Shown: in pieces, positions 10,923 to 53,874 of the stretch
Position numbering within the stretch: position 1 is the stretch's first letter
Layout: every line of letters begins with the position of its first letter
Assembly (NCBI GenBank): GCA_003194525.1
Contig: NBIV01000131.1
Location: 62,001-126,000 of the forward strand
Direction of reading: 5' to 3'
Length of the DNA: 64,000 nucleotides
Origin: Gracilariopsis chorda
Lineage: Eukaryota; Rhodophyta; Florideophyceae; Gracilariales; Gracilariaceae
Notes under the pieces: model-generated
What the model was told of the DNA's origin: nothing
Databases searched by the model: none
Seen by the model: only the letters and a program-made list of their open reading frames with translations
Made by a program: the position numbers and the translations under genes

Positions 10923-11116
10923 TGTGACGACGAACCGATACCCCAGGAACAGCGACGCCGGTGACGAGTGTTCCTGGGTGCTTTATATAGAGCGCTCCCT
11001 AGCTACGTGGCAGTGGTGGACGTGTGTGCGCGTCACCATGAGGGTGGCTGGCAGCCACTGGCTGCGTAACAGCACGCGGTGAGAGTGGAGTCGTACCGTC
11101 TTTGCGCGTCACCACA
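10923..11116 (-). repeat. Copia 3' LTR, full length 194 bp
   Basis: Starts TGTGACGACG and ends CGTCACCACA on the plus strand. It contains a 9-bp inverted repeat CCCAGGAAC/GTTCCTGGG and, read on the minus strand, a TATATAAAG box. The gag-pol stop codon (10999) lies inside it, so the last ~39 residues of the polyprotein are LTR-encoded. Confidence 0.9.
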
Positions 11117-14100
11117 GGCCCCCCCACCGCGTGCGATGGAGGTTGGGCTCGAACATAAGCTGTGAGATCTCGAAAGCGCTGAGGTTTCAGTGGTTTCGTG
11201 AGCGGGTCAGCAAGCATCGTGCTTGACAGTATGTGATGAACGCAGACATCTTTGCGCCGTACTGCATCCAAGACGAAGTGATAGCGAATATCGATGTACT
11301 TTCGCCGCTTTGTGGGCGCTGTGGAGTTTGAAATCAATACAGCAGCTTGATTATCGATCTTGAGCGGAGTAGCGGCCTCACAGTGTTGACGGAGTTCGGT
11401 TAAAAAGTTGCGTGTCCATACAACTTCTTGTACGGCTTGAGACGCGGCGATAAATTCGGCCTCACACGTTGACAGACTGACCGTCCCTTGTAGGGAACTA
11501 CGCCATGAGATTGGTGTGCCGTTCAAGAGGATCAGGATGCCGGTGACAGAGCGGCGGTTTGTGGTGTTGTTGGCATAATCCGCGTCAACATAGCATTCCA
11601 GCGATTGCGTGTGACCAGAACGAAAGTGCAGGCCGGCATCGCGAGTGCAGTAGAGGTAGCGGACTAGTCGCTTGAGCATTAGCCAATCATGATGTGTTGG
11701 ATTCCGTTGAGAACGAGCAAGGGCGCTGGTCAGAAAGGCAATGTCGGGGCGGGTTGAATCGGCGATGTAGCGGATGGTTCCAAGGGTTTCGCGGTAAAGT
11801 TTGTGGATTACGTTGGAGATGGGCTGGGATGGGAGCGGTATCTGTGGATTGAGGCCGTCTGTATATGGTGTGCTGACCGGATTGCCATGGCGCAGTCGAA
11901 GTTTCTCCGCTATTTCGTGGATGAGGTGGTTCTGGTGTACGCGAAAACCTGAAGCAGTGTATTCAAAGTTCCAACCAATGTACTTTGTGGGCTTACCAAG
12001 CCGTTTCACGGTGTATTTCGCCTGCAGAGCAGTGTGCAGTTCATCAAGTGAGCGGCGGTCGGATGCTGCTGCAAGAAAGTCGTCGGTGGTGATTCCGACG
12101 ATAGTCAGGCCGTGACGTGTTGGTTTGAGAAAAACATTTGGATCGGATTTGAGAGCTTGGTAACCATGAGCAGTGAGGTGAGCATAGAGACCTTTGGTGT
12201 ATAGGAATGCAGCAGGTGGCGTGCCATAGAGGTTGCCAATGAGTCTTCCAACTGCATGTGGGTGTTTGAGGCTGCCGTCAAAGCGCGGTGGCTGTCGAAT
12301 GTACACTGTGTGATTGGGATCGTACTTTTCATGGAGATACGCTCCTTTGATGTCAAAGTGTTCGAGACAGAGTTGATGCTCTGCCGCAAGTGAGAGTATG
12401 ATGCGAGTTGTGGTTTTGTCGACGTTGTAAGATGCTGTGCAAGCAGGGTTGAAGTGTTGATGTGGAATCATTAGGTCTCCTCGCACTGCACAGCGAGCTT
12501 TGCGGGCTGTGATGGTGTTGTCAGGAGAGGTCTTATAGCGGTACTGCATTGTGGTCGAAATCGGGTGGATGTTGTGAGGGACATCGGAGGTCCAATGTAT
12601 GGCACCCATTTCATCTAGTTGGTCGAGTTCCTGGTTGTGAGCAGCTGCCCACTTGAAAGAGTCGGGATATTTCGCCGCTTGATGCTGCGATGTAGGGGGT
12701 GGCGTACTGGGTGTGATGATGGACGGAATTCCGCGAAAGGCCCGAGCAAAGACGGTGCATGGATCAGCGTTGGGGTTATAGATTTGGAAATCGATGGTAC
12801 GGCAGATCTGCTCGCGGTTGAGGAGGATGTTCCATACCTTAATGTGTGTAGGGCTCGTAGGGTGAAGGTAACGAACCGGATCAGCACGTCTGTGAAGTTT
12901 CTTTTTGTGGGGCTGTAGCCGTGGAATTGTGCCAAGTTGTCCAAAAGTGAAGAGGCGAGAGAGGCGGGGAGGTTGACCATACCAGAGCGTATATGGGATA
13001 TTTTTGACAGCCGAGTGGAATATGAGATTGTACTTGAAGGCAGCATCGGTGGCGGCATCTTGCCAGTACGAATTGGGAAGGCGACTGTGAACGAGAGAGG
13101 CACGGGTAGTGTTGAGGAGTGAGCCGTTGACGCGTTCGGCTATCGAATTTTCTTGTGGGGAGTATGGGACTGTGGGGTGGAAACGAATGCCACGCATGGT
13201 GAGAGCCTTTTGAAAGGATTGGGATGTCAGTTCTTTAGCGTTGTCACTAACGAGATGGAGTGGGTGGCGATTGTGAGTGGCGTAGATGAGGGTGAGAATG
13301 TCGAGAAGTTGGGTCAGAGCTTCGGAGCGGGTTTTGAGGAATCTTATATGAAGGAAGCGGGATGCTATGTCGATGGCAACAAGTATGTGGCTGTGCCCTT
13401 GTCTAGAGGGAGGTTGAAGCGGGCCACAGGTGTCGATGGCGATGTATACGCCAGGGGAGGTATGGTGCGTTGTGCGGCGATGAGGTTGGGGTTTCGATTT
13501 GCCTTCGCGGCATCCGCGACAGTGTAGCTGCGGTGGAGTGTGTTGGAGACTGCGAGGGAGATTTGGGAGGAGATTGTGTTTGGCCATTACCTGAAGGGTG
13601 CGGGGGTGGATGTGACCTAGCTTGAGGTGCCACACCATGAAGTCATGCTTGATTTTCGAGGTAGGAGGGGGAAGTGACGGAGGTTGGTGGCGAGTGAGCC
13701 AAGGTTGTTGCGATTCTAGGGATGGGGTAGGGAATGTGTTGAGATTGGGGATGCGGGATTGTAGCGGGGGGGAAGATGTTGGGGTTGGCGGGGGTATAGA
13801 TGTTTGTGGGTTGATAGGCTTGAGTAAGGGGTTTGTGCGTTGGGTTATCGTTCGAGTTCCAAAGGCGTGGGAGGGAGTATCGAGAGCATATTGGTTGTTT
13901 ATCAAGGAAGCACAGGCAATGATTTCGGAACTAAGGGGTGGTCGGCGTGGACGAATGACTGCAGCCTTGGAGGGGGTGAAGACGACGAGTCCATACTTGT
14001 GCGCAAGTGAGGTGACGGAAAGGAGATTCTGCCGTATGTTTGGAGCATGGACCGCATTGGAGATGACGAGTGGCTTATGCGTCGTTGGAATTGTTATTGA

Positions 14101-15318
14101 CCCCTGTTTCGTGATGCGGGAAGTGTGGCCATTGGCGGACAGGGTGTAAGTTGGTCCTGAGGGGGAATTCATGGTGGGGTGTGGAGTGGAGACGTGTGTA
14201 GGATAAGCGCCAGAATCGAGAATGAACTTACCATCGGGCGGTGCGGAATGGTCAGCGTCCACATTGTGTTCTAATGCAGACATGCGGAGCAGAAGCTCCT
14301 CGAGAAGGTTTTTCGAGGACGACTCCGGTTCAGCCACGAACGCCCGAGCTTGCATTTTTGCCTTGTTCTGTAGTGTGCACTCATCATCGCTATGGGTAAC
14401 ACATCCATGTACGCGACACCACTTTCCAGTGTAGCCCTGGGGACGAGGATGATTTGAGAACGGTTTGTTGCGTACACGACGAGGACGAGAACGGGAGGCC
14501 TCGGGTGCGGTGGGTGCTGGCGTGAAGGATGTGTAAGGTGAAGTGGATGAGGTTGGTGTGATAGCTTTCTGCAGTAATGTGGCTTGCTGGAGGCGGTTCG
14601 TAAATTCTCTAATAGTTGGCGGTGGGGATCCTGCCATGACGATGGCCAATTGATAGAGGTCAGGGTTGAACTTCAAACCATAGACAAGGTACTTGACAGT
14701 AGTTTTCTCGTCAGATATATTGGGGAATTCAGCGTTGAGCATTTTGGTTCGGATCTTGAGATGTTGAGATATATAGTCCTTGATTTCCATGCCTGTAGTA
14801 AATAAAAGAGCTCGTGCTTCTGCATCGAGTGTATCGTGATCTTCCATGTTTCTTTGTTGTACGTGTGAGGAAATAATTTTAGTTATGCGGTAGGGACTTT
14901 CAGCTAGGATGTTTGTCGGGAGTTGTTCAATGATGTGTTCCGGAATGCTTTGCATAATGAGTGACTTCACTTTGTTGGATTTTCTTGTATGAACCGACAG
15001 TAAAGCTGGATCCTGAGGTACAGGTAGATCATTTTCAAGTAGCGCATCTGCGTCTAATAAGGCGGCATTTATAGACAGAGCGTCTTTCCAGAAGGTGAAA
15101 TTTGTATAAGACAGTTTTGGTTGAGAAAGAGATTTCATGATGGAGAGATGTTGTGTAGAAGATGTTTCAGTGACTGAGAGGCTGAGGGAGGATTTTTCTT
15201 GTTGAAGAGTGTAACAGTTTTGAAGAAGGCTTTGTATATAGTAGTCGTCTTCCGATCTGTCCTGTCGTCTTAAGAATCTTGAAAGTCTTGAAGAGATTTC
15301 AGACGTCTCTGGGCCCAT
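10999..15318 (-). CDS. Copia gag-pol polyprotein, intact
   Basis: 1439 aa in one frame. Gag occupies about 1-360 and carries a Cys/His knuckle-like WCRVHGC..H....C near 320. Protease has the LDSGA active site near 365. Integrase has its His2-Cys2 finger near 572-605 and the D-D-E core at about 629 (AIDTCGP), 694 (SDNAKE) and 730 (SIAERVNG). Reverse transcriptase has FDIKGAYL near 991 and GITTDDFLAA near 1078. The usual YVDD is TTDD here, keeping both Asp. RNase H has YVDADYA near 1243, CEAEF near 1288 and KIDNQAA near 1323. All catalytic acids are present and there are no stops, so the element may be autonomous. It starts inside the primer site and stops inside the 3' LTR. Confidence 0.95.
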   Translation of the reverse strand: MGPETSEISSRLSRFLRRQDRSEDDYYIQSLLQNCYTLQQEKSSLSLSVTETSSTQHLSIMKSLSQPKLSYTNFTFWKDALSINAALLDADALLENDLPVPQDPALLSVHTRKSNKVKSLIMQSIPEHIIEQLPTNILAESPYRITKIISSHVQQRNMEDHDTLDAEARALLFTTGMEIKDYISQHLKIRTKMLNAEFPNISDEKTTVKYLVYGLKFNPDLYQLAIVMAGSPPPTIREFTNRLQQATLLQKAITPTSSTSPYTSFTPAPTAPEASRSRPRRVRNKPFSNHPRPQGYTGKWCRVHGCVTHSDDECTLQNKAKMQARAFVAEPESSSKNLLEELLLRMSALEHNVDADHSAPPDGKFILDSGAYPTHVSTPHPTMNSPSGPTYTLSANGHTSRITKQGSITIPTTHKPLVISNAVHAPNIRQNLLSVTSLAHKYGLVVFTPSKAAVIRPRRPPLSSEIIACASLINNQYALDTPSHAFGTRTITQRTNPLLKPINPQTSIPPPTPTSSPPLQSRIPNLNTFPTPSLESQQPWLTRHQPPSLPPPTSKIKHDFMVWHLKLGHIHPRTLQVMAKHNLLPNLPRSLQHTPPQLHCRGCREGKSKPQPHRRTTHHTSPGVYIAIDTCGPLQPPSRQGHSHILVAIDIASRFLHIRFLKTRSEALTQLLDILTLIYATHNRHPLHLVSDNAKELTSQSFQKALTMRGIRFHPTVPYSPQENSIAERVNGSLLNTTRASLVHSRLPNSYWQDAATDAAFKYNLIFHSAVKNIPYTLWYGQPPRLSRLFTFGQLGTIPRLQPHKKKLHRRADPVRYLHPTSPTHIKVWNILLNREQICRTIDFQIYNPNADPCTVFARAFRGIPSIITPSTPPPTSQHQAAKYPDSFKWAAAHNQELDQLDEMGAIHWTSDVPHNIHPISTTMQYRYKTSPDNTITARKARCAVRGDLMIPHQHFNPACTASYNVDKTTTRIILSLAAEHQLCLEHFDIKGAYLHEKYDPNHTVYIRQPPRFDGSLKHPHAVGRLIGNLYGTPPAAFLYTKGLYAHLTAHGYQALKSDPNVFLKPTRHGLTIVGITTDDFLAAASDRRSLDELHTALQAKYTVKRLGKPTKYIGWNFEYTASGFRVHQNHLIHEIAEKLRLRHGNPVSTPYTDGLNPQIPLPSQPISNVIHKLYRETLGTIRYIADSTRPDIAFLTSALARSQRNPTHHDWLMLKRLVRYLYCTRDAGLHFRSGHTQSLECYVDADYANNTTNRRSVTGILILLNGTPISWRSSLQGTVSLSTCEAEFIAASQAVQEVVWTRNFLTELRQHCEAATPLKIDNQAAVLISNSTAPTKRRKYIDIRYHFVLDAVRRKDVCVHHILSSTMLADPLTKPLKPQRFRDLTAYVRAQPPSHAVGGPVVTRKDGTTPLSPRAVTQPVAASHPHGDAHTRPPLPRS

Positions 15319-28785: not shown

Positions 28786-30699
28786 ATGGTCTGGCAGTAC
28801 CTCCTAATCACTTCGGTCGACGGAAAGTCACCTAGATGGCATCCCTATACCCCACAAGCCTCGTCCAAATTGGATTCCCTTTTCGCACATGCTCACGCCA
28901 CACGTTCCAAACGTACAACCTTTCACGTGCAGTCCGGCACCTACCAATATGAAGTCAATATGCTCACGATGACCCAACGCAACATCACCACTGGAAAGCT
29001 CCGCCCTATTCGACGATGCCTTCAATCCGTAATCAGCTCAGATGCGTCTGAACCTAAGAAAAAGAAACCTAAACTCTCATCCTCACTCCAGCTCAGTCAT
29101 CTCTTTGCAGGTCTTCACGGCCACGTTTGGGAACCTGTTCTCCTTCCGCTAATCGAAACCCTCCCAGATGCTGCTGATTACCTTGCACCTTATCGCCATT
29201 CCGCCATCTTACCACTTCGTCAGCTCACATTTCAAGCCCTCAAACCCAATCTCCCTGTTGACTGGAAGGTTATAGTATTCGGTCAGAACCCAGTACATAC
29301 TTCAATTCCCTCATTCTGTCATCTACTTTCGTACGAAACGCCCCATCGTTATGAAGACGTACTCACGACCATTGTGCATCCGCAGTATCCGCGTGTTGAA
29401 TCAGCCACAGGTATAGCGCTCTTCGATGCTCAGCTTGATGACTGGAATCACGCCAAGTTCGGCACTATACTATCCATGCGCAACCTCATCAAATCTGCAG
29501 CCATGACCAAGTATAACACTTCCAACGCCACCAAAGTGGCTCAACTTCGTCATATCCTCGCCCAGAACAAGGTAATCACGCCCTCACAATGGTTTCAAGC
29601 TATCCTCGCCCAAGGTGTCTTACTCTTAAACGCCTCACTCACCATAGGCGGGGGAAAAAAAGCCTCCCAACATACCACCTTCTGGCGCCCTGTAATAAAG
29701 AAGATAGTTGAACACATTCTTCTTCAAAAACAAGCTTTGCCGCCAAGCGATGGTCGCCGAGGTCTTCTGTTCCTGTGGTGGGGTCGTCAAGCACTTGCAA
29801 CTAAGAGAAGGCTATCGACCGTTCTAAGCAGGTACCTTCATCTTCCTGTCAGACACTTGGAATGGTGGAACCCTGCCTCACAGAGAAATGAGTTCTGTTC
29901 AAGTACTCATCTGTCAGATGTCAACCAGCAGCTTAACCAAATGGGGATGCCACAGATAAACTGGCTTCCGGACGAGCAATGGCTCAAAGAAAATAATGAT
30001 TCGATCAGCGTGTTCACAAATTTCGTCACGGATACCAAGAAGCTCCATGCGATGTACCTGGAGAGGTTGCAAACTGGATTAGAGTTGCAGGCAAACAATA
30101 CCCCCATCACTGGCATCAAGGGTCTTGTAGTCCAAGGGCTCGTAGAGGCCGTAGCCCCTTTTGGTGTAGAAGGGGCAGCGGAAAATATACTGGGTATTGT
30201 CCGAGGGAAACATTGCGGAAATCTGTCCGACTCGGAAAAGGGCGCGATATACATGTATACCACTGGATGTTTGTATCACCGACTCAACATGGCACTTAGG
30301 ACGTCAACCAGGGAGGGGTTAGTATGCTTCCTTCAATATCTAAAGCTGTTTCTGCTTGCGCATGACAAGCTGGATGAAACAGATTGGGTAGATTTATACA
30401 GAGGAGCAAATGCTGACTTGAGTGACCAATATGAAGTTGGGAGCATTGTGACGTGGTGGAGTATCTCCAGTTGCTCTTGCAACCCGGAGATTGCGCACTC
30501 TTTTTCTGGACGAAATGGCACGCTGTTTCACGTGAAAGCGAAGAGAGCGACCAGCATAGCGTTGTTAAGCGCATATCAAGGAGAAGAGGAATTTGTTCTT
30601 GCGCCTGGAACGCAACTTAAGGCGTTGAAACGCGAGAAAGGTAAGGGTGTGAATGAGGTGTACTTGGAGGAGGTCATCGCCTCAAGACTTGTTTGCTGA
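28786..30699 (+). CDS. WWE / UDG-like / ADP-ribosyltransferase fusion protein
   Basis: 637 aa from an ATG in strong context (GCCATGG). An in-frame ATG 78 bp upstream has a weaker one. Residues 1-77 form a WWE domain (W3, RWHPY at 17-21, YEV..LTMTQRN, then RPIRR), which binds ADP-ribose units in eukaryotes. A KKKKPK nuclear-type signal follows (91-96). Residues 104-395 align in order with uracil-DNA glycosylase: the water-activating loop as GQNPVH (166-171, normally GQDPYH), QGVLLLNASLT, LLFLWWG, then NPASQR (362-367, normally HPSPLS) and INW. Both catalytic residues are changed (Asp to Asn, His to Asn), so base excision is unlikely. Residues 455-637 form an R-S-E ADP-ribosyltransferase: Arg539 in LYRGA, Ser559-Ile-Ser561, and the E-x-E motif at Glu600/Glu602 before FVLAPG. 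The transferase looks active. I infer a nuclear protein that reads ADP-ribose and nucleic acid and modifies a target by mono-ADP-ribosylation. Confidence 0.8.
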   Translation: MVWQYLLITSVDGKSPRWHPYTPQASSKLDSLFAHAHATRSKRTTFHVQSGTYQYEVNMLTMTQRNITTGKLRPIRRCLQSVISSDASEPKKKKPKLSSSLQLSHLFAGLHGHVWEPVLLPLIETLPDAADYLAPYRHSAILPLRQLTFQALKPNLPVDWKVIVFGQNPVHTSIPSFCHLLSYETPHRYEDVLTTIVHPQYPRVESATGIALFDAQLDDWNHAKFGTILSMRNLIKSAAMTKYNTSNATKVAQLRHILAQNKVITPSQWFQAILAQGVLLLNASLTIGGGKKASQHTTFWRPVIKKIVEHILLQKQALPPSDGRRGLLFLWWGRQALATKRRLSTVLSRYLHLPVRHLEWWNPASQRNEFCSSTHLSDVNQQLNQMGMPQINWLPDEQWLKENNDSISVFTNFVTDTKKLHAMYLERLQTGLELQANNTPITGIKGLVVQGLVEAVAPFGVEGAAENILGIVRGKHCGNLSDSEKGAIYMYTTGCLYHRLNMALRTSTREGLVCFLQYLKLFLLAHDKLDETDWVDLYRGANADLSDQYEVGSIVTWWSISSCSCNPEIAHSFSGRNGTLFHVKAKRATSIALLSAYQGEEEFVLAPGTQLKALKREKGKGVNEVYLEEVIASRLVC

Positions 30700-37491: not shown

Positions 37492-38490
37492 ATGCCTCGC
37501 GGTAAAGCGCTAACTGACAGAGAAAAAGGCATCATTATAGCCTTACGACATGAACAACTCAGCGAACGAGAAATTGCTGATGCTGTCGGTCGATCCAGGG
37601 GGGCTGTTCAAAACGTTCTGAACAACTCCAACAAATCCAAACGCAAATATTCAAGAGCTAACAACCGTAAGCTTACCAAAAAAACGGAGCGTCGAATAAT
37701 TCGAAAGGCCCTGACTGGTGAGTTTAGTGCCAATGACATACGTCGGGACATGCAACTACCGTTCACAACCCGTCGCGTTCAGCAAATACTTCACAATGTC
37801 CCTCACCTGAAGTACAAGAAAATGATGAAGGGTCCATACATGAAGGCTTCACACAAAACTCGAAGAATGGAATTTGCCAGGAAGTACCTTCAAGCAGAAG
37901 CTATTGACTGGAAGAATGTTATTTTCACGGATGTAAAAAAGTTTAATTTGGATGGACCTGATGGCAATTGCATGTATTGGCATGATTTACGAACCGAACC
38001 AAGGTGGTTTTTTAAGCGCAACATGGGAGGAGAATCTGTAATGGGTCTGAGAGCTATTTCTTACTACGTTGCTTTGCAGGTAGTGGAACTAAACGGTAAT
38101 CAGAATTCTAATGACTATGTGAAACTACTTGACGAGAACCTTTTACCGTTTGCTGCGGAAACACTGGGAGAAAATTGGACTTTGGTTAATGATGGGGCTT
38201 CTATCCATCTTTCTAAGGTCACCAAAGAGTGGATAGCACGCAAGAAGGTGGATGTTCTACAGTGGCCTGCACATAGTCAGGACCTTAATTTAATCGAAAA
38301 TGTCTGGGGTACTATGGTTCGAGATGTCTACCAGGGTTTCAAGCAGTTTGAAACTGTAGAAGAGCTTGGTGCAAAGATTGAATCAGTTTGGAATAATATC
38401 GAAGAAGCTTTTATAGGGAATCTTTACCGTTCTATCAATAACCGTCTACTGTGTGTGCTGGACGCAAATGGTGGGCCATCAGGCTACTGA
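37492..38490 (+). CDS. Tc1-type DD34E transposase
   Basis: 332 aa, full length for the family. Residues 1-110 hold two helix-turn-helix motifs (LSEREIADAVGRSRGAVQNVL and the second around FTTRRVQQIL) that would bind the terminal repeats. The catalytic triad is Asp143-region (IFTDVKKFNLDGPDG), Asp in TLVNDGASIH and Glu in LNLIENVWG. Thirty-four residues lie between the second Asp and the Glu, so DD34E. The frame is intact. Changes from the usual consensus are VKKF for EKKF and SQDLNLIEN for SPDLNPIEN. Since the ends and frame are complete, it may be active or only recently silent. Confidence 0.95.
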   Translation: MPRGKALTDREKGIIIALRHEQLSEREIADAVGRSRGAVQNVLNNSNKSKRKYSRANNRKLTKKTERRIIRKALTGEFSANDIRRDMQLPFTTRRVQQILHNVPHLKYKKMMKGPYMKASHKTRRMEFARKYLQAEAIDWKNVIFTDVKKFNLDGPDGNCMYWHDLRTEPRWFFKRNMGGESVMGLRAISYYVALQVVELNGNQNSNDYVKLLDENLLPFAAETLGENWTLVNDGASIHLSKVTKEWIARKKVDVLQWPAHSQDLNLIENVWGTMVRDVYQGFKQFETVEELGAKIESVWNNIEEAFIGNLYRSINNRLLCVLDANGGPSGY

Positions 38491-42800: not shown

Positions 42801-45374
42801 TAATCGCGCTGGGCGGTGCAAGTTTGGATACGACAGCAACATGATTGTGCCGGAGACGTACATTGAAGAAGGCACGAATCGCGTGATCTACCACAGAAGA
42901 AGGCAACAAGACCTCAAGATAGTGCCGTACAACCCAACTCTGACCAAGAAGTACCGCTCTCATATCAACGTAGAACGCACGCAAGGAGGGGGCGCAGTGG
43001 CTTATCTGATGAAGTATGCGTTCAAGCAGCCCAAAACTCAGGAGGTGGTGCTCAATGTGAGTGGTGCTAATGAGACAGGCACACACAACGAGCAGCAACA
43101 AGAGCTGCAGGTGCAGAACGACATTCGTGCATAAATGCGAGCGCGTGTGGTGGGCGCCGTCAACGCAGCTTGGAGAATTTTCGAGTTTCGACATGTTCAC
43201 ATCGTACCAAAAGTAGAGCGACTGGCCATTCACTTGGAAGGAGAGCGAACGTTTCTGTTCAGAGGTCCAAATCATATCCATTCCGCATCGCCACCGTCTA
43301 CGTTGGAGAGATACTTTGCATGGCCCGAAGCATATGCGAACCTCGACTACCTTTCGTACTTTGAAAAAGTTCGATTGTATCGCACAATTCCAGCCCGAGT
43401 GCTTAACCAATACGACGGAGACAGCACTTCAGTGCCCACAGACGACTGCGATCCGCTTATGTACGTGGTAGAGCGCACGGACGACGAGCAGTGGGTCGCA
43501 AGGATCAGAGGTGTTTCTCTTTCGGACATTGAGCTATTTGCTCAGCGCTTGCTGCTCATGAATCACGGCTCGAGCTCTTATGAAGACCCAAGGACTTTCA
43601 ATGAACAGCAGTATGAAACTTATCGTGAAACCACAATTGCAATCGGATTGCTCGCGGACGGATCCGAGCTTGATATTGCATTTCAAGAAGCCGTGCAGAT
43701 CTACAGCACGCCCTCCGAGCTACTACGTCTGGTTGTCACACTATACCAACAAGGCGCAGACCCAGAAAAAATGGCCGTCGAAAACTGGGAGGCGCTTTGT
43801 AGCGACATACATACAGGAGATGAGCAGCAACGAAAGCAAAAAATGTATCGACGTGTCGTGGAGATCTCAGACCGGAACGGAGGAAGACTGCTTCGCGATC
43901 ACAGCTTCTTCTCCCAACACCTACAGCAGGATCATGCAGCATTGACTGAGGCGAATCGAGCTACAACAACTCGAGACGCGCGAGTGGTGCGAAACTCGTC
44001 AGCTTTGCAGTCAAGGTACGCCACCTTAAAACCTCGCCAAAGACAAGTCATTGACACCGTCATTGCCGCATTGCAACAACGACAGGCGTTGCAGGAGCGA
44101 ACAAGCACTCCTGGAAACGTGTTCTTTGTGCAAGGATCCGCAGGAACCGGAAAGACATACGTGCTCAACCTCCTTCGTGATATCGCTGAGTCGGAAGGAA
44201 TGCTCGCCGAAATGACTGCTACAACAGGCATTGCAGCTTCTTTATACGAAGGTGGCCGCACTTTACATAGCCTGCTCGGACTGGGTGTAGCTGATAGGGA
44301 CAGCACAAGCAGCACGACAGCCACTTTGTCAAAGTATGGTCCCCGATCTCAACGAGCAGAACTGCTGCGCGAAATACAAATGCTCGTCTTGGATGAGGCG
44401 TCCATGCTCTCACGAAAGCTCTTTGAACTCATAGATGCGTTGCTCAAAGATCTTCGCTGCAGTGGAATGGAAAACCCGCCTCCGTTTGGGGGCTTGACCA
44501 TCGTTCTATCCGGCGACTACTCCCAGCTGCTTTCAGTGGTCCCGCAGGTGTACATGGAGGCCGAGCCAAGTGGAAATGTGGGAAGAGTGTACACAAACAT
44601 TCTCAACGAATTGCCGTGGAAGAGTGATCTGTGGACGTTGTGCTCGGTTCAAGTGCTGTATCTCACGGAACAAGTACGCCAAGCCGATGATCCGCATTTG
44701 CGTCGCTGTTACGTTCCATTGCATGCAACACAAGATCCGACAACGCTCCATTACCACTCAGATCTACCGGTGGCATGCAAACCGCTTACCAATTCTTGTG
44801 GAAGTGGCTCACAACACGACGCAAGGAGGATGTGGATCTCAGCAAAATGCTCATTGCGTCCACAAACCAGTTGGTCGACAAACACAATTCGGCAGCGCTG
44901 GATCTGTTTCCTGGTGAATGCTTCACTCTTCCGTCAGCTACGACGGTACAACCTGACGGTGGACAGAACTCAGACCCCGAGGTTACCAGTACTTTTGTTC
45001 CAGAATTTGCATATCAGTATGCGCCTACTGGAATACCGCCTCATAACTTGGACTTGAAGATTGGTTTGCCAGTTACGGTCATTCGGAACGTGCTGCGTCC
45101 CGCTCTGGTCAACGGAAAGCTGTTTGTAGTCGTGCGTGTTGATCAGTTTACGATGCAGGTGGCTCGATTCGACGAGAACGGACAAATGCTGGAACGACAG
45201 CTCTTGCATCGTATGGACTTCGAGTTTTCTTTCGCAGACATTCGCATGATTCGAAGGCAGTTCCCCATTCGTCTTGCGTTTGCAGCTACCGCTCACAAAG
45301 GACAGGAAAAAACCTTGGACGGTTTGGTTGTGGATGTACGATCCAACTTCTTCTTCTGCGCCGGTCAGTTGTAA
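39865..45374 (+). pseudogene. Helitron Rep-helicase, two stops and one frameshift
   Basis: The frame begins with about 18 copies of a GGARANS-type 7-residue repeat (39880-40240), a Pro-rich linker and three copies of an EVEEDEI..P unit (40560-40830). A Cys/His finger follows (CGRCGEHAHTLSSC, then CKFCG, about 41010-41130). The Rep domain holds the HUH motif as NVPHHHMLVW (near 42635-42664) and its Tyr motif as YLMKYAFK (near 43003). The PIF1-type helicase has Walker A GSAGTGKT (44134), Walker B LDEAS (44390) and LSGDYSQLL. A C-terminal part in another frame (44775-45374) ends with AATAHKGQ..TLDGLVVDV. The lesions are TAA at 42526, TAA at 43132 and a +/-1 shift near 44700-44770. The sequence is otherwise clean, so decay is recent. 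Confidence 0.85.
39880..40245 (+). repeat. 21-bp tandem array, GGARANS repeat
   Basis: About eighteen 21-bp units encode a Gly/Ala/Arg/Asn repeat at the N-terminus of the Helitron protein. The minus strand is also open through it. Confidence 0.9.
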
Positions 45375-46455: not shown

Positions 46456-48099
46456 TTAGCTTGCTACCGCTACTTCGTGTTTTGTAGGCGTTCGTGCAAC
46501 TAGAGAAGTCTTGTTCACGCAAACACCATCTCCAGCACAAAGAAGCCCGTCTGCACAAGCAACGCATTCACTGTCACACTTTGCACCCTCTGGAACCAAT
46601 AGTGCACAAATGTCTTCCCCAAGTCGTCCGGTCTGGCACACTCGTCCACCCCAACACCTTCCTCTTACACATGTGGGGCAACCCAAAGTCCTTCGCTGTT
46701 GACAAACTCCCGAGCGGCACACCAGTGTATGATCACAAACTGAACAGGCATCACCACAGGGGTGCCCCTTCCGGAGGAGTACTCGGCATTGCCGATTTAT
46801 GCATAAGAGTCCCTTTGCACACTCGGAAGATTTCTCGCAAGCCGCACAACGGGCAAGTTTGACCGCACGGCATATCCCTCCCTTACATATCAAACCATTA
46901 TGACAAGCTTCACATTTCCCGCTGCAACTCTTGCCTATTCCATACGGAACTGCGCAATGAGATCTTCTACAAACCAGACCATTACGGCAATCAGAGTGAT
47001 TAGAGCATGAGCCACACTCTTGGTGCAACCTCTTGTTTGCAGTGTGCTGATCGGACTTGCTACCTGGGTATCCCGTTTTGCTATGGTCTTCCTTCTTCTT
47101 GCTCTTTTTCTTGGCCGTGGTCTTCTCCTTGTTCTTGTTCTTGTTCTTGTTCTTGTTCTTGTTCTTGTTCTCGTTCTCGTTCTCGTTCTCGTTCTCGTTC
47201 TCGTTCTCGTTCTCGTTCTCGTTCTCGTTCTCGTTCTCGTTCTCGCTCTTGTTCTCGTTCTCGTTCTTGTTCTTGTTCTTGTTCTTGTTCTTCTTTTTCT
47301 CGAGCATCTTGCTCTTCCTCATAAGTTGGCAGCGGCCATCCCAACACCGCAGTCCAGATTCGCAAAACGTACAATCTTGGTCGCACGCGGATTGCAGGCC
47401 TGCAGATATCCGGCATTTTCCATTTCTGCACGTATACTTGCCATGGCAATCTGAATCCTTGACACAGGTCTCACACGCTCTCACATTTGTCTTTGTGCAG
47501 CGTCGATAGTGACAGGTCATGTACTTGTCACAAACGGTGCAGCGGCCCGTCCCACAAGGATGCCCGTGCTGCACTACTCTTCGACACTCTCCTCTTGTGC
47601 ATATATGTTCTCTAGCACATTGACTTCTCTTCGAGCACCTCGCGCAGTGGTTGCGTTTCTGTCTTCTGTAACACTTGCCCTCGATACAAATGAGTTCTTT
47701 CTTACATCTAGAGCACCAATACCCACATGTTTGTCCAACGGTTACAAGCAGAGTGCAGCGTTTAGCACGACATATTTGTCCTTTCTGACAGTCTTTCTTC
47801 CTCCGACACGTTCCACATTGGCCTTGCTTTCTCAAAGTCAGTGTGAGACCCTCTCTTCGGTTCGGGTGCTGGATCATTCCACTTAAAAACTCGTCATGCA
47901 ATAGAGGCCCCAGAACAGGCCCTACAAGGTTATGGCCACTTCGAATTTGCGCGTGTAAGGCGGATACTGGTTGCAGTTGTGAGTCTCCGCCTGCACCCCA
48001 GGTGGTGGGATCTGCTTGCTTTGAGACATGAGTTGCACTTGGTTGAAACTGCAGCATCAACGTGTGTGCTAAGAGCACTGACGTGGTGAATGCGAGCAT
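46456..48099 (-). CDS. Secreted protein, six 10-Cys modules around a Lys/Asn/Glu repeat
   Basis: 547 aa from an internal ATG (48099) that opens a clean signal peptide (MLAFTTSVLLAHTLMLQF). The longer frame upstream lacks one. Three modules, a charged (KN)n/(EN)n tract of about 60 residues (encoded at 47120-47300), then three more modules. Each module follows C-x2-C-x5-C-x5-C-x4-C-x9-C-x3-C-x2-C-x5-C-x4-C with small deviations. The same spacing is in the next gene (48995-52567), on the same strand. No named family fits with confidence; Cys-rich extracellular modules of the EB or Dickkopf sort look similar. I infer an extracellular, disulfide-rich structural or binding protein. Confidence 0.75.
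   Translation of the reverse strand: MLAFTTSVLLAHTLMLQFQPSATHVSKQADPTTWGAGGDSQLQPVSALHAQIRSGHNLVGPVLGPLLHDEFLSGMIQHPNRREGLTLTLRKQGQCGTCRRKKDCQKGQICRAKRCTLLVTVGQTCGYWCSRCKKELICIEGKCYRRQKRNHCARCSKRSQCAREHICTRGECRRVVQHGHPCGTGRCTVCDKYMTCHYRRCTKTNVRACETCVKDSDCHGKYTCRNGKCRISAGLQSACDQDCTFCESGLRCWDGRCQLMRKSKMLEKKKNKNKNKNKNENENKSENENENENENENENENENENENENENKNKNKNKNKNKNKEKTTAKKKSKKKEDHSKTGYPGSKSDQHTANKRLHQECGSCSNHSDCRNGLVCRRSHCAVPYGIGKSCSGKCEACHNGLICKGGICRAVKLARCAACEKSSECAKGLLCINRQCRVLLRKGHPCGDACSVCDHTLVCRSGVCQQRRTLGCPTCVRGRCWGGRVCQTGRLGEDICALLVPEGAKCDSECVACADGLLCAGDGVCVNKTSLVARTPTKHEVAVAS
47120..47300 (-). repeat. Hexanucleotide array coding (Lys/Glu-Asn)n
   Basis: Tandem TTGTTC / TCGTTC hexamers on the plus strand, coding KN and EN dipeptides on the minus strand. 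It lies between the two halves of the Cys-rich protein. Confidence 0.9.
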
Positions 48100-48994
48100 G
48101 TCTGATGTGCTTAAAACAAAAAGAAGTCGCTGTTGGGAGGCGGCCTTTATTTGTTCTGTGCTTTTTTCGTGAGCTTCTGGAGTAGAATGTGTTGGACGAA
48201 AAGGTAATGAACGAGAATTAAGTCTTAAATGCTCAGTTGCTTTTGCTGGGTGACAAAAAAAGCCAGATTGAGTACCCAGTACCAACAGTCGTGGTGAGCG
48301 CAAACAACACATGAGAGCCAAGCCTAAAGAATCAAGACTGCTGTGCTCCCCCCCAAATTCGAAGTCCGTCTGCACTAAGCATTGGGCTTATGCATAGCAA
48401 ACAGTGCATGCTCACAATCATTGCCTGTCCATCAATTACTTGTTCAACAAATCATCCCTCACAATTCCTTTCATGGAACACAAGCCGAAATAGACACAGA
48501 TACCACTTTCATAGCTGCTAGTCAGGTAGGAATGGTTGAATTGCTTCCATATACTGAGAATGCCACCTCTGTTTGTGTATAGTATTCCTCTAATCACGAC
48601 AGTGAGGTACCATGTAGAGGCTCTTCCACCATGAACCTCCTATAGAATGCGAAGAATTGCCAAGCTAAAACCGAAGCATAGAATGATCAACCAAGGTATC
48701 CCACTACTGCAGTATGTAACCCGTATATCTCTATGAGCTAAAATAGCGCACAACAACAACACAAGCAATAAAACTACCCTGACTACACAAGTGGCAAACA
48801 TTGAGTACCAAGGGTAACAAGAACCTGCAAAAAAGGCTAATGCCAAAGTCAAAGTCGTGCTAAGTTTAAGATCAACACTTCGCCTTGAACGACAGCATGA
48901 AAGCAACAAATTGCTTCAAACAGAGAATGTCAGAAGTTGTCTACAGGTAGTAAGAACTTCTTAATTACGGAAGGTTTGTCACCCAACGGATATT
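48100..48994. other. Intergenic between the two Cys-rich genes
   Basis: Promoter region of the gene at 48099 and 3' flank of the gene at 48995. A minus frame at 48640-48909 (89 codons) has two hydrophobic segments and could be a small membrane protein, but nothing else supports it. Confidence 0.4.
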
Positions 48995-51900
48995 CTAATG
49001 ACGGGTGCAAGTACCGCTGACACATGCAAGACCCTTTGCACATCCCCAACAAGGGTCATCACATCTGCCACCCTCGGACATTGGCATCGCACATTTTCCT
49101 CGGCTAGGATCAGAGTCTAAAGGTCTGCAGACGAGACCTTGAACACAATCAGCATCATGTTCACAATACCCACACTTCTGGTTTCTAGAGACGCATCGAT
49201 AGTACCTGGAACACCTCTGATCTGGAGGGCACATGATACATGCATCTCCATTTCCGCCACCTTCAGGATCGCACCACGAACCTCGAGACAGTAATCTGGC
49301 GCAGCGATTCTTTTGGAGGTGACAGGCAAGGTTTCCGCTACAGTCAGAGGTGCTCTGACACGGTTCACATAGTCTTGACTTCGGTGAAGGCAAGGGATTC
49401 ACTGATGGTTTCGGAGTGCGGCTAGATGACGGCGAGGGCCTCGGACTGTTGCTCGATGACGGTCTAGGAGTGCCACTGGGCGACGGAGAAGGCCTCGGAC
49501 TTTTGCTCGATGACGGTCTAGGAGTACGGCTGGAGGACGGTGAGGGCCTCGGACTGTTGCTCGATGACGGTCTAGGAGTGCCACTGGGTGACGGTGAGGG
49601 CCTCGGACTGTTGCTCGATGACGGTCTAGGAGTGCCACTGGGCGACGGTGAAGGCCTCGGACTGTTGCTCGATGACGGTCTAGGAGTACGGCTGGAGGAC
49701 GGTGAGGGCCTCGGACTGTTGCTAGATGACGGTCTAGGAGTGCCACTGGGTGACGGTGAGGGCCTCGGACTGTTGCTCGATGACGGTCTAGGAGTGCCAC
49801 TGGGTGACGGTGAAGGCCTCGGACTGTTGCTAGATGACGGTCTAGGAGTACGGCTGGAGGACGGTGAGGGCCTCGGACTGTTGCTAGATGACGGTCTAGG
49901 AGTGCCACTGGGTGACGGTGAGGGCCTCGGACTGTTGCTCGATGACGGTCTAGGAGTGCCACTGGGTGACGGTGAAGGCCTCGGACTGTTGCTCGATGAC
50001 GGTCTAGGAGTGCCACTGGGTGACGGTGAAGGCCTCGGACTGTTGCTCGATGACGGTCTAGGAGTGCCACTGGGTGACGGTGAAGGCCTCGGACTGTTGC
50101 TCGGTGACGGTCTAGGAGTACGGCTGGATGACGGTGAAGGCCTCGGACTGTTGCTCGATGACGGTCTAGGAATACGGCTAGATGACGGTGAAGGCCTCGG
50201 ACTGTTGCTCGATGACGGTCTAGGAGTACGGCTAGATGACGGCGAGGGGTCCGGGTGACAGGAGTGGCTGGGAGAAGGAGTACCACTCAAAGAAGGGTGG
50301 ACAACATCACTGTGTGCTGGGGATGAAAAGGGTGTCGGTGGGACACGGAGATCTGGTATATTCTTACAATACCCTCCACGGCAGACCAAGCCCTTAGCAC
50401 ACACCCAACAGGGATCATTACACCTCTTCCCGATACCCACTAGCTTGGAGCAGCGTCCCTGAAGGCACACAGACCCGCGCAAACACTGTGAGTTAGAATA
50501 ACATCGTTTGCATTGACGCGCACGTAATCGCATGCACCTTCCGCGGTTGCAGACAAGACCCTTGGCGCAAAGCGAGCAACGGTTTTTGCAGATCTTTCCT
50601 TCTCCCACGAGCTTGGAGCAGCGTCTACGAGCGCATACAGATCCAGGTTGACATTGTGAGGTCGACGAACACCGTTCGCAATGACCAACACGAGGCTTCA
50701 CACACTTCCCGTTATTACAGGCCAGCCCCTTGGCGCACAACCAACAAGGGTCATTACAACTCTTTCCGACACCCATAAGCTTCGAGCAGCGTCCACGGGC
50801 GCACACAGATCCAGGTTGACATTGTGAGGTCGACGAACACCGTTTGCAGTGTCCAACACGAGGCTTCACACACTTCCCGTTATTACAGGTCAGCCCCTTG
50901 GCGCACAACCAACAAGGGTCATTACAACTCTTTCCGACACCCATGAGCTTCGAGCAGCGTCCACGGGCGCACACAGATCCAGGTTGACATTGGGAGCTCG
51001 ACGAACACCGTTTGCAGTGACCAACACGAGGCTTCACACACTTCCCGTTACTACAGGTCAGCCCCTTGGCGCACAACCAACAAGGGTCGTTACAACTCTT
51101 TCCTACACCCATGAGCTTCGAGCAGCGTCCACGGGCGCATACAGATCCAGGTTGACATTGTGAGGTCGACGAACAACGCTTGCAATGGCCTACGCGAGGG
51201 CGGACACATTTCCCACTGCGGCAAAGTAAGCCAGACTTGCAAGTCCAGCACGGGTCATTACAACGACGGCCTTCTGGCATAGGAACTGCACACTTTCCAC
51301 TCTTGCAACGTAAGTAGGGGGCGCAGTGAGCATGGGAGTGGCAGGGCTCGCATTTACCTCCTTTACGTCGTAAGCACTTCCCAAAGCGACAAACAAGACC
51401 CCTGTTGCAAACGTTACACGGATGTCCACATGAAGCCAATACTGAGACGGGTTGTGAACACCGACGATTGAAGCAAACGAGGCCAGATCTGCAGTCCCGA
51501 GAAGAACTGCAAGGCGCGCATTTGGGGCGATTTGCCTTGACACAGCGACCGCGGATACACGCCAGGCCATGTTTGCAATGACGGCAGCCATAACCACACT
51601 TCGCGTTCGTGGAACCGTGCGCAAAGCAACGCCCGCTAAGACACCTGAGACCGCGAGCACATTCGGATGTTCTACCACACTTGTCACAAGGTCGCTTGTT
51701 AACTGGGGCATGAATGTTGAGAATATATGGCTTCGGCGGGCGTGGGCTCTTATGATCGTAGGGCTTCGAGGGCTGTGGGCGTTTGTGGATGTAGGGCTTC
51801 TTCGGACGAGGAAGTGGACGGTTGTGGATGTAGGGCTTCTTCGGACGAGGAAGTGGACGCTTGTGGATGTGGGGCTTCTTCGGACGAGGAAGTGGGCGTT

Positions 51901-52567
51901 TGTGGATGTAGGGCTTCTTCGGACGAGGAAGTGGACGTTTGTGGATGTAGGGCTTCTTCGGGTGTGCTCGGGGACGTTCGTGAACGTAGGGCTTCCTCGG
52001 GCGTGGTTGGGGACGTTTCTGAACGAAGGGCTTCCTCGGGCGTGGTTGGGGACGTTTCTGAACGTAGGGCTTCCTCGGGCGTGGTTGGGGACGTTTCTGA
52101 ACGTAGGGCTTCCTCGGGCGTGGTTGGGGACGTTTCTGAACGTAGGGCTTTTTCGGGCGCGGTCGCGGACTCTGATGAACGCGGGCCTTCTTTGCTGGAG
52201 GACTATGCTTGTAGCGGTGTTTGTGCGCCGGCTTCTGCTTGGAGTGGTGTTTGTGCGACGGCTTCTGCTTGGAGTGGTGTTTATACGCCTGTTGCTTATG
52301 CTTATAGTGGTGTTTGTGAGCTGGCTTATGCTTTTTAGGGTGCTTACGGGAGTTCCTCTTCTTTGAAGATGTGTTTCTCCTCCGTCGCTTCCTTCTGGAT
52401 TCATGCACAGCGACATCGTTGACGAAGTCCGGGTCAGAAGGCAACGTGGCTGAACGTGCAATTTGAGGCGTGCCTCCCGGAGTGGAAGGGGAAGTGGGTT
52501 GTGATGCGGTGACGACAAGCGCCGCCAGCGCACACAGGAGAACGAAAAACAGGGGTGAGCGCGTCAT
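48995..52567 (-). CDS. Large secreted protein: basic repeats, ten 10-Cys modules, Ser/Pro repeats
   Basis: 1190 aa from the ATG at 52567, which begins a signal peptide (MTRSPLFFVLLCALAALVVTA). Order: a His/Lys-rich stretch (HKHHSKQKP type units), about a dozen units of KRPQPRPRKPYVQ type, eight Cys modules, about fourteen 18-residue units rich in SPRPSPSPSGTPRPSSSN, then two more modules, one expanded. Module spacing is that of the neighbouring gene at 46456. Modules 4-6 are nearly identical in DNA. The Ser/Pro array resembles hydroxyproline-rich wall glycoproteins. The strongly basic repeats could bind sulfated wall polysaccharide. This role is inference. No enzyme motif is present. Confidence 0.8.
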   Translation of the reverse strand: MTRSPLFFVLLCALAALVVTASQPTSPSTPGGTPQIARSATLPSDPDFVNDVAVHESRRKRRRRNTSSKKRNSRKHPKKHKPAHKHHYKHKQQAYKHHSKQKPSHKHHSKQKPAHKHRYKHSPPAKKARVHQSPRPRPKKPYVQKRPQPRPRKPYVQKRPQPRPRKPYVQKRPQPRPRKPFVQKRPQPRPRKPYVHERPRAHPKKPYIHKRPLPRPKKPYIHKRPLPRPKKPHIHKRPLPRPKKPYIHNRPLPRPKKPYIHKRPQPSKPYDHKSPRPPKPYILNIHAPVNKRPCDKCGRTSECARGLRCLSGRCFAHGSTNAKCGYGCRHCKHGLACIRGRCVKANRPKCAPCSSSRDCRSGLVCFNRRCSQPVSVLASCGHPCNVCNRGLVCRFGKCLRRKGGKCEPCHSHAHCAPYLRCKSGKCAVPMPEGRRCNDPCWTCKSGLLCRSGKCVRPRVGHCKRCSSTSQCQPGSVCARGRCSKLMGVGKSCNDPCWLCAKGLTCSNGKCVKPRVGHCKRCSSSSQCQPGSVCARGRCSKLMGVGKSCNDPCWLCAKGLTCNNGKCVKPRVGHCKRCSSTSQCQPGSVCARGRCSKLMGVGKSCNDPCWLCAKGLACNNGKCVKPRVGHCERCSSTSQCQPGSVCARRRCSKLVGEGKICKNRCSLCAKGLVCNRGRCMRLRARQCKRCYSNSQCLRGSVCLQGRCSKLVGIGKRCNDPCWVCAKGLVCRGGYCKNIPDLRVPPTPFSSPAHSDVVHPSLSGTPSPSHSCHPDPSPSSSRTPRPSSSNSPRPSPSSSRIPRPSSSNSPRPSPSSSRTPRPSPSNSPRPSPSPSGTPRPSSSNSPRPSPSPSGTPRPSSSNSPRPSPSPSGTPRPSSSNSPRPSPSPSGTPRPSSSNSPRPSPSSSRTPRPSSSNSPRPSPSPSGTPRPSSSNSPRPSPSPSGTPRPSSSNSPRPSPSSSRTPRPSSSNSPRPSPSPSGTPRPSSSNSPRPSPSPSGTPRPSSSNSPRPSPSSSRTPRPSSSKSPRPSPSPSGTPRPSSSNSPRPSPSSSRTPKPSVNPLPSPKSRLCEPCQSTSDCSGNLACHLQKNRCARLLSRGSWCDPEGGGNGDACIMCPPDQRCSRYYRCVSRNQKCGYCEHDADCVQGLVCRPLDSDPSRGKCAMPMSEGGRCDDPCWGCAKGLACVSGTCTRH
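49415..50262 (-). repeat. 54-bp minisatellite coding Ser/Pro repeat
   Basis: About fifteen highly similar units of 54 bp, each coding an 18-residue Ser/Pro/Arg unit. Unit variants (GTPRP, RTPRP) alternate, suggesting unit conversion. The plus strand is open by chance. Confidence 0.95.
50640..51190 (-). repeat. Near-identical 10-Cys module repeats (about 162 bp)
   Basis: Three to four consecutive modules differ by only a few bases (for example GCCAGCCCC versus GTCAGCCCC), so recent duplication or conversion is likely. Confidence 0.9.
51730..52330 (-). repeat. 39-bp and 30-bp minisatellites coding basic repeats
   Basis: Tandem 39-bp units (51730-52170) code the Lys/Pro/Arg repeat and 30-bp units (about 52190-52330) code the His/Lys repeat of the large Cys-rich protein. 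Confidence 0.9.
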
Positions 52568-53874
52568 GACGGGCGATGAGGACGGACGAGCGAAGACCAG
52601 AAGCATGACGCGAGCTGTGCAGCGGCTGATAAACGCGACGACTGAGACGCGCAACGGACCGCGGGGCTTTGTCAGCCAATGTGGTTACGGCGAGTGGGAG
52701 GTGAAGTGCGTTAAGCATTCCCTCTTTGCAAGGGGCGTGAGCGCCACGACGGGTTGAAGGGGATGCGAGGTTGCACTTCGTTTGAGAATGTTAATATACC
52801 ACGGTTAGGTACGAGTGTTTGGAAAGAATGGGCGACGAAAGCACGGCGAGGAGCTCGCGCCGCTTGACACGCCCGATGCGCCGTTTGAATTGGCGTAGGG
52901 CTGAGATGAAACATTGCTTTTGCGGAGCTAATGGTGATTGCGTTTGCGTTATACGCGCGAGAATGTCGCACCGGTGTTGCTGCCGGAAAGGGCGTGCGCT
53001 TGGCTGAGCGAATCGACCGTTCATCTTGTTTGAGAAATGTGTTTGCCAGCCCTTGGTAGGAGCGGCGCTCTTCTCTATCGCCTGTGCAAAACGTTCACAG
53101 GTTCTTCACGGCCTTGGAGTGGGACTCCGGGAATCCCTGCTCTTTAAAGGGTCTAGCTCCATGCACGACCAATGAGCTTTGTTTGTCTGGTATCTACATC
53201 TGCCAAACACGTTTCCGCCACGTGTACACGCACGCAAATTCCTAAATAGAGATACACATCAGGGCATCCCTCGCTGTCCTAAAACACTCATGCCATTTGT
53301 AGCTTCATGATTGGATGACTAACAAAAACAGCGCTTGCGCCATAAAACTTCACTCCGACATTTCCGAAACAAGCCTTGGGCAGCTAAACGTTCGGACCAT
53401 CTTCGCCGATAACTTTAGCGTTGCGCCATTTCCAATGGGAGAAAAAGTCTGCAATACGAAAAGGGATCGATCCTTTTGCCAAATGTGTCAAGAGAAGTGT
53501 GGCGGGTCACATATTGGAAACGTGCCCTTTCTTGCCTAATTAATCTAAAACACCTGAACAAATTGGCAGCCCTACCCCTGGTACCGTTGGTACTATGTGC
53601 ATGTACCATCTAGTGCATGTACCAATTGGAGGGCTTGAGGAAACATGAGCAGTAAGGTGCCAACGGGGCCGCATTGCATGCAAAACCCAAGTGGTGTTTC
53701 GTCGCTAGGTCACAACTTCGCCACCACGCGTTATCAGCACAGCACAACTTCAGTCGTCCTTCCCCCCCCCCCATGTTGTTCGTGCCGCGGCAGATGCGCT
53801 GCTACGCCGCTTCTTCCCTCACCCTTTCCGTAGCTCCCATTCCCCCATAGCCTACAACTACTTTCTTGGCCACC
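52568..53874. other. Divergent intergenic region with poly(C)
   Basis: Holds promoters of the Cys-rich gene (minus) and the membrane protein gene (plus). A C homopolymer at 53761-53772 lies about 100 bp before the downstream ATG. No gene recognised. Confidence 0.45.

What the first reader, a model, noticed from the sequence alone, without database searches (positions are those of the whole stretch)
28786..30699. WWE + UDG-like + ADP-ribosyltransferase in one protein
Seen: three domain signatures in order in one 637-aa frame. WWE (RWHPY, TMTQRN, RPIRR), a uracil-DNA-glycosylase series (GQNPVH, QGVLLLNASLT, LLFLWWG, NPASQR, INW) and an R-S-E transferase (LYRGA, SIS, E-E-E before FVLAPG). Known: WWE binds ADP-ribose units; UDG binds DNA and excises uracil; R-S-E transferases mono-ADP-ribosylate Arg or other targets. 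WWE usually partners PARP-type (H-Y-E) or ubiquitin domains. Inference: a self-contained reader-sensor-writer that could respond to damaged or foreign DNA, or act in defence. I know of no description of this architecture.
Basis: partly seen in the sequence, partly recalled or inferred. Interest (0 to 1): 0.92.

Follow-up and report, generated by a model that had tools for sequence, protein, structure and literature searches.

The report
Damage-linked UDG–ADP-ribosyltransferase with WWE reader
A red seaweed gene joins a module that probably reads ADP-ribose chains, a DNA-repair-enzyme-like module and an enzyme head that should attach ADP-ribose; its bacterial cousins sit beside a likely eraser gene behind a DNA-damage promoter, which points to an undescribed damage-response system.

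Summary
Spliced, the protein is 606 aa and reads GQNPYPRVESATGIA, as its relatives do. WWE and ART pass Pfam cut-offs; the UDG part matches uracil-DNA glycosylases. The genome is Gracilariopsis chorda, a red alga; it also holds a decayed second copy with an intron at the same site.

The UDG-ART core is a large bacterial family. Six other listed relatives carry WWE, including a diatom's. In 75 of 80 bacterial loci a macro-domain gene (predicted eraser or reader) lies next to it or is fused to it. A published DNA-damage promoter consensus (P1/RecA-NDp) precedes 50 of these 75 pairs; 2 copies occur in the other 1.28 Mb.

Best reading: a DNA-damage-linked ADP-ribosylation writer placed on DNA by a UDG-derived module; in algae, WWE and a nuclear signal would direct it to PARP-marked sites. 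ART catalytic residues are conserved. The UDG catalytic Asp is Asn family-wide and the His is Trp here, so this copy is probably a binder, not a glycosylase.

The parts
28786..29292 (+). Exon 1: WWE, basic linker and first part of the UDG-like domain
   Evidence: open frame; collinear with relatives up to GQNP
29293..29385 (+). Intron, 93 nt, GT-AG, phase 0, in frame and without stop
   Evidence: absent from relatives; 83-nt insertion at the same site in the C376 copy
29386..30699 (+). Exon 2: rest of the UDG-like domain, ART domain, stop
   Evidence: collinear with relatives
28789..29016 (+). WWE domain (residues 2-77)
   Evidence: PF02825 E=3.7e-11; PDB profile match to DTX1 WWE E=5.5e-7
29056..29073 (+). 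Basic stretch KKKKPK, nuclear-signal-like
   Evidence: K[KR]x[KR] upstream of the UDG part in 18 of 21 rows of eukaryotic clades, 6 of 189 other rows
29086..29982 (+). UDG-like domain (about residues 101-368 spliced), interrupted by the intron
   Evidence: conserved columns
29281..29394 (+). UDG motif A, GQNP|YPR, split by the intron
29629..29631 (+). Asn of LLLN (N251 spliced), at the base-recognition position of UDGs
   Evidence: 120 of 120 rows; role by alignment to UDGs and recalled UDG knowledge
29863..29865 (+). Trp (W329 spliced) where 209 of 214 relatives have the motif-B His
30220..30672 (+). ART domain (Pfam match)
   Evidence: PF01129 E=1.4e-7
30400..30402 (+). Catalytic-type Arg of R-S-E (R508 spliced)
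   Evidence: 120 of 120 rows
30469..30471 (+). Ser of R-S-E (S531 spliced)
   Evidence: 120 of 120 rows
30583..30591 (+). E-x-E (E569, E571 spliced)
   Evidence: 120 of 120 rows

Best explanation
The gene encodes a 606-aa ADP-ribosyltransferase of the R-S-ExE type that works in the DNA-damage response. Shown by sequence: WWE, UDG-like and ART domains in one gene; conserved ART catalytic residues; the bacterial UDG-ART core sits beside, or is fused to, a macro-domain gene behind a DNA-damage promoter motif; the alga has a PARP1/2/3-type PARP and its own ordinary UNG. Inferred: in bacteria DNA damage induces the unit, the UDG-derived module settles on DNA (uracil, abasic or single-stranded sites), the ART puts ADP-ribose on DNA or on a bound protein, and the macro protein removes or reads the mark. 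In algae the enzyme gained a nuclear signal and WWE, so that it goes to poly-ADP-ribose laid down by PARP at breaks. In this alga the UDG module is probably a DNA or base binder rather than an efficient glycosylase.
For: Domains. R, S, E, E identical in 120 of 120 rows. Macro gene next to or fused with UDG-ART in 75 of 80 loci: 57 divergent, 7 same-strand upstream, 11 fused. Published P1/RecA-NDp consensus before 50 of 75 pairs (core form 65 of 75); 2 (6) copies elsewhere in 1,284,680 bp, 0.13 (0.53) expected from intergenic density, at most 1 (2) loci in 200 letter shuffles. Basic stretch before the UDG part in 18 of 21 rows of eukaryotic clades against 6 of 189 others. The alga's only two WWE domains found are this gene and its decayed copy; it has a WGR-PARP and a canonical UNG.
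Against: No activity, substrate, transcript or structure was tested. The motif mostly points at the macro gene; in divergent loci an exact copy faces UDG-ART in only 5 of 57, so damage control of UDG-ART itself is shown best in the 18 same-strand or fused loci. 25 of 75 pairs lack the exact motif, 10 of 75 the core. The 4 non-actinobacterial loci lack a macro neighbour. The 80 loci are the nearest to one query and 33 are Streptomyces, so they are not independent. The closest solved WWE is DTX1, which binds iso-ADP-ribose weakly (PMC11269756 passages), so PAR reading is not assured. The window row is on a long branch. No macro or ARH eraser was found in the algal genome.
Confidence: 0.55

Rival explanations
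1. Toxin-antitoxin or anti-virus system: UDG-ART is a DNA- or protein-modifying toxin that recognises foreign or uracil-bearing DNA and the macro protein is its antitoxin, as in DarT-DarG; the alga uses it against viruses or mobile DNA.
For: Writer beside macro domain in 75 of 80 loci is the DarTG layout. SCO6735, another macro protein under the RecA-NDp promoter, can neutralise DarT (PMC9411070 passages), so a damage promoter does not exclude this.
Against: No PADLOC match; none in phage records or viral contigs; only 4 of 72,556 plasmid records, of 0.33 to 11.9 Mb; no shared defence neighbour; in 11 loci writer and macro are one protein, which a free toxin would not be. These do not rule it out.
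Confidence: 0.2
2. DNA-repair enzyme proper: in most members the UDG domain is an active glycosylase (Asn and His as in SMUG1) and the ART marks the repair site or regulates the glycosylase; signalling is secondary.
For: Motif-A Asn in 113 of 120 rows and pocket Asn in 120 of 120; motif-B His in 209 of 214; SMUG1 uses N85 and H239 (PMC13230825 passages).
Against: The window and P0003 have Trp for the His, and the Leu of the UNG wedge motif is Ala (HPSPLS against HxNPAA). Match to UDG models is below equivalog cut-offs.
Confidence: 0.15
3. The gene in this alga is decaying and has no function, like the C376 copy.
For: The second copy has stops and frame breaks; long branch; lost UDG residues.
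Against: This copy is open over both exons; the 79%-identical P0003 keeps the frame and the ART residues; the WWE residues shared by the 7 aligned rows are kept.
Confidence: 0.1

Closest known systems
DarT-DarG (DNA ADP-ribosyltransferase with macro-domain hydrolase)
   Same: An ADP-ribosyltransferase gene linked to a macro-domain gene; link to DNA damage
   Different: ART here is the PF01129 R-S-ExE type with a UDG-like domain; the macro partner matches DarG only at 13.6 bits against a cut-off of 250. DarT itself was not compared by sequence
SCO6735, Streptomyces coelicolor macro hydrolase of DNA and protein ADP-ribosylation
   Same: Macro domain under the RecA-NDp promoter, UV-induced (PMC9411070 passages)
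   Different: Its neighbour SCO6734 is an amino acid permease and its transferase is not known; here the macro gene is paired with UDG-ART. Sequence relation to SCO6735 was not tested
Uracil-DNA glycosylase superfamily; best profile match PDB 5x3g
   Same: GQ-x-PYPR motif A, LLLN, NP motif B with His in most members
   Different: Asp to Asn in motif A; wedge Leu to Ala; fused to ART; below equivalog cut-offs
Arginine-type ARTs (Vis, Tre1, rat ART2)
   Same: R-S-ExE residues and PF01129 match; profile hits to 4xzj 1.8e-9, 6dre 9.2e-8, 1og3 1.9e-6
   Different: Intracellular multi-domain protein with UDG and WWE; no signal peptide was sought
WWE-PARP proteins (PARP11, RCD1 and others)
   Same: WWE reader joined to an ADP-ribosyltransferase
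   Different: PARPs are H-Y-E transferases (PMC4245714 passages); this one is R-S-E with a UDG-like middle

Membership tests
WWE domain (PF02825) | Score above the curated cut-off | tested here: met
   43.7 bits against 21.1
WWE domain (PF02825) | Adenine-binding Gln, with conserved Tyr and Arg | tested here: met
   Q64, Y55, R73 identical in 7 of 7 rows, one row a half domain; Q aligns with the Gln of DTX1, PARP11 and HUWE1; role from PMC11269756 passages. That Y55 and R73 are the binding Tyr and Arg is inferred
WWE domain (PF02825) | Binds PAR or iso-ADP-ribose | not testable with these tools
   needs a binding assay
NAD:arginine ADP-ribosyltransferase (PF01129) | Score above the curated cut-off | tested here: met
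   31.5 bits against 22.3
NAD:arginine ADP-ribosyltransferase (PF01129) | R-S-ExE catalytic residues | tested here: met
   120 of 120 rows
NAD:arginine ADP-ribosyltransferase (PF01129) | Transfers ADP-ribose to arginine | not testable with these tools
   substrate unknown
Family-1 uracil-DNA glycosylase (UNG) | Catalytic Asp of GQDPY | tested here: not met
   Asn here and in 113 of 120 rows; Ser 4, Ala 2, gap 1
Family-1 uracil-DNA glycosylase (UNG) | HPSPLS with catalytic His | tested here: not met
   WWNPAS here; His present in 209 of 214 relatives, none with HPSPLS
Family-1 uracil-DNA glycosylase (UNG) | Score above the equivalog cut-off | tested here: not met
   TIGR00628 48.2 bits against 185.75
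UDG superfamily (fold) | UDG alpha/beta fold | tested here: inconclusive
DarT-DarG toxin-antitoxin | Macro partner scores as DarG | tested here: not met
   NF048014 13.6 bits against 250, one partner tested
Known anti-phage systems | PADLOC model match | tested here: not met
   0 matches in 4 proteins at E up to 1

The most novel reading that the evidence does not exclude
A previously undescribed DNA-damage-response system: in bacteria, a damage-inducible unit of a macro-domain protein and a uracil-glycosylase-guided ADP-ribosyltransferase that marks DNA lesions or the proteins on them. Algae with red-type plastids and red algae took the writer into the nucleus and gave it a poly-ADP-ribose reader, so that a bacterial-type R-S-E transferase was wired into PARP signalling.
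Probability: 0.4. Interest if true: 0.88.

Novelty: new variant of a known kind. Interest (0 to 1): 0.75.

Why it matters
It would give bacteria another ADP-ribosylation writer with a linked macro partner, tied to DNA damage. It would also show a bacterial R-S-E transferase recruited into eukaryotic nuclear PAR signalling, where transferases joined to WWE are otherwise PARPs (H-Y-E) as far as I know. In actinobacteria a damage-regulated macro hydrolase, SCO6735, has no known endogenous transferase (PMC9411070 passages); UDG-ART is a candidate class of writer for that world, though no link to SCO6735 was tested. The claim is directly testable in Streptomyces: promoter, partner and catalytic residues are all named.

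Tried and rejected
The idea that the diatom N-terminal extension (P0122 residues 1-229) is a second, alkyladenine-type glycosylase came from recall of motifs; PDB and Pfam searches at E up to 10 gave no match, so I do not claim it. A first clustering of neighbours hid the macro gene, because antisense frames chained it to the family; tblastn separated it. The paper search for 5X3G gave 5 unrelated papers. BdiUng was found only as one mention in PMC8307549 (passages). PMC11377751 and PMC9266487 were searched for passages only and describe no such fusion there; PMC9503650 holds none of the words UDG, uracil, WWE or glycosylase, PMC7159879 holds neither UDG nor uracil. Bacterial contamination was rejected: the gene has an intron, a WWE domain and a diverged copy elsewhere in the same genome. 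One long frame as a single exon was rejected for the intron.

Full report
WHAT IS THERE. The frame at 28786-30699 (+) is open for 637 codons. Pfam finds WWE (residues 2-77, E=3.7e-11) and ART (479-629, E=1.4e-7), both above cut-off. Between them lies a region related to uracil-DNA glycosylases: NCBIfam E=1e-14 but below the equivalog cut-off, PDB 3tr7 E=2.4e-11. Pfam's own UDG family did not match at E up to 10. With a profile of 25 relatives the best solved structure is a UDG, 5x3g, E=3.8e-17, which reads GQDPYPRPES where this family reads GQNPYPRVES.

AN INTRON IN THE FRAME. The 31 residues after GQNP are missing from the relatives read here. The DNA there is gtacat...ccgcag, 93 nt, phase 0, no stop. 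The second copy of the gene in the same genome (contig 376) has an 83-nt GT-AG insertion of largely different sequence at the same place; 83 is not a multiple of three. There is no RNA evidence. The model of the nearest relative, P0003 (79% identity over 404 columns), starts 31 residues behind this site, which may explain why it shows no WWE.

THE HOST. The genome's ordinary UNG is 100% identical to a protein named Gracilariopsis chorda on a contig of 148,203 bases, the length of the contig it lies on here, so the window is from this red alga. The genome holds that canonical UNG (GQDPYHGPGQ, HPSPLS), one PARP with WGR, regulatory and catalytic domains, two WWE domains (this gene and its decayed copy) and one ART match (this gene). 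No macro or ARH match was found at E up to 0.001; six-frame searches can miss genes split by introns.

THE FAMILY. Two searches gave 754 and 1062 relatives at E up to 1e-3, each among 8000 candidates and with only the best 120 listed. Listed ones are largely UDG-ART proteins of about 500-560 aa, many from named bacteria; others carry vWA or macro domains. Besides the window and its near-identical entry P0002, six listed proteins carry WWE: P0004, P0005, P0007, P0122 (Seminavis robusta), P0123, P0124. P0004 is named as a complete frame of one transcript. In a quick maximum-likelihood tree of 59 rows that I chose out of 216 proteins then held, a 15-row clade (SH-aLRT 98) contains the 7 WWE rows within a 12-row subclade (96). 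The WWE label needs 4 changes there, at least 3 on starred branches, so a single gain with losses or cut gene models is possible but not shown. The window row is on a long branch, 1.12.

RESIDUES. In 120 aligned rows R508, S531, E569 and E571 of the ART (spliced numbering) and the UDG pocket Asn N251 are identical; the motif-A residue is Asn in 113, Ser in 4, Ala in 2, gap in 1. In 214 relatives GQNPYPR occurs in 200 and the motif-B His in 209; P0003, like the window, has Trp. Human SMUG1 uses an Asn and a His as key catalytic residues (PMC13230825 passages), so many members could still be glycosylases; the algal protein, without the His, probably is not an efficient one. A basic K[KR]x[KR] stretch precedes the UDG part in 18 of 21 rows of eukaryotic clades, against 6 of 189 other rows, those six inside the long N-terminal part of larger proteins. 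The grouping follows the tree; among the 8 rows with a named eukaryotic source (window included) it is 6 of 8. The pattern is loose and is no proof of nuclear entry.

WWE. The seven WWE pieces share Q64, Y55 and R73. The Gln aligns with that of DTX1, PARP11 and HUWE1; such a Gln holds the adenine ring in solved WWE structures (PMC11269756 passages). The nearest solved WWE is DTX1 (E=5.5e-7); RNF146 comes only at 0.04. DTX1 binds iso-ADP-ribose weakly, so strong PAR binding should not be assumed.

THE BACTERIAL PARTNER. One scan of genome contigs gave 243 stretches, 211 of them relatives, of which the best 80 loci were kept. In 75 of 80 a macro-domain gene lies within 3 kb: 57 divergent, 7 upstream on the same strand, 11 fused in frame. 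The other five are four non-actinobacterial loci and one with only 70 bp upstream. One macro frame (L007, 225 aa) matches an ADP-ribose-binding macro model at E=1.6e-23, below its equivalog cut-off. The next most shared neighbour cluster was seen in 8 loci. The 75 loci fall under 18 genus labels, 32 of them Streptomyces. No relative was found in phage records or viral contigs; 4 plasmid records of 0.33-11.9 Mb hold one.

A DNA-DAMAGE PROMOTER. Actinobacteria have a LexA-independent damage promoter, consensus tTGTCRgtg-N8-TannnT (PMC5656591 passages). A RecA-NDp-type promoter precedes numerous DNA-damage genes in Actinobacteria (PMC9411070 passages); that the two names mean one motif is from recall. 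TGTCRGTG-N8-TANNNT lies in the promoter region of 50 of 75 pairs (32 of 57 divergent, 18 of 18 same-strand or fused), against 2 copies in the other 1,284,680 bp of the 80 loci. The intergenic density elsewhere predicts 0.13, and 200 letter shuffles gave at most 1 locus. The core TGTCRG-N10-TANNNT is in 65 of 75, under 16 genus labels, against 6 elsewhere; 0.53 expected, at most 2 in shuffles. In divergent loci the exact motif faces the macro gene in 32 and UDG-ART in 5; in same-strand and fused loci it precedes both. Related species are not independent, and 25 of 75 lack the exact form.

READING. The simplest account is an ADP-ribosylation writer with a linked macro partner in the bacterial DNA-damage response, aimed by a UDG-derived module, and a nuclear, PAR-reading version in algae. 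Shown: domains, intron (by comparison), conserved residues, macro linkage, damage-promoter motif. Inferred: what is modified, what the UDG part binds, that WWE reads PAR, that the algal protein is nuclear and working.

LITERATURE. A search for uracil-DNA glycosylase, ADP-ribosyltransferase, WWE and 'domain architecture' found 0 papers; UDG, ADP-ribosyltransferase and WWE as whole words 0; with macro domain and Streptomyces 0; with vWA 1 unrelated paper. Looser sets matched 137, 56 and 9 papers, of which I saw listings of 20, 15 and 9; none listed describes the fusion in title or abstract start. The library holds open-licence papers only.

Noticed in passing
G000:C376:29111-30939 (L005): A decayed WWE-UDG-ART second copy in the same genome, 37% identical over residues 201-636, with several stops and frame breaks and an 83-nt intron at the same site.
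   Followed up: partly
P0122, P0004, P0123, P0124 N-termini: Diatom-type WWE-UDG-ART proteins carry a further conserved N-terminal region of over 200 aa (motif GGWYFHRT...GWKGGTF) with no Pfam or PDB match for the one tested, P0122.
   Followed up: partly
P0129: A SAP domain followed by two UDG-like repeats; the listed sequence shows no ART and may be a cut gene model.
   Followed up: no
vWA-UDG-ART proteins such as P0015, P0018, P0023, P0094: A branch of bacterial-type members about 1040-1055 aa long with an N-terminal vWA domain.
   Followed up: no
window 10999-15318 (-), 37492-38490 (+), 43135-45057 (+): Mobile-element-like genes around the finding: a copia-like polyprotein by eye, a DDE_3 transposase and a PIF1-like helicase by Pfam.
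   Followed up: partly
window 46456-52654 (-): Two long frames with many cysteine-rich repeats and low-complexity KP- and SP-rich stretches.
   Followed up: no
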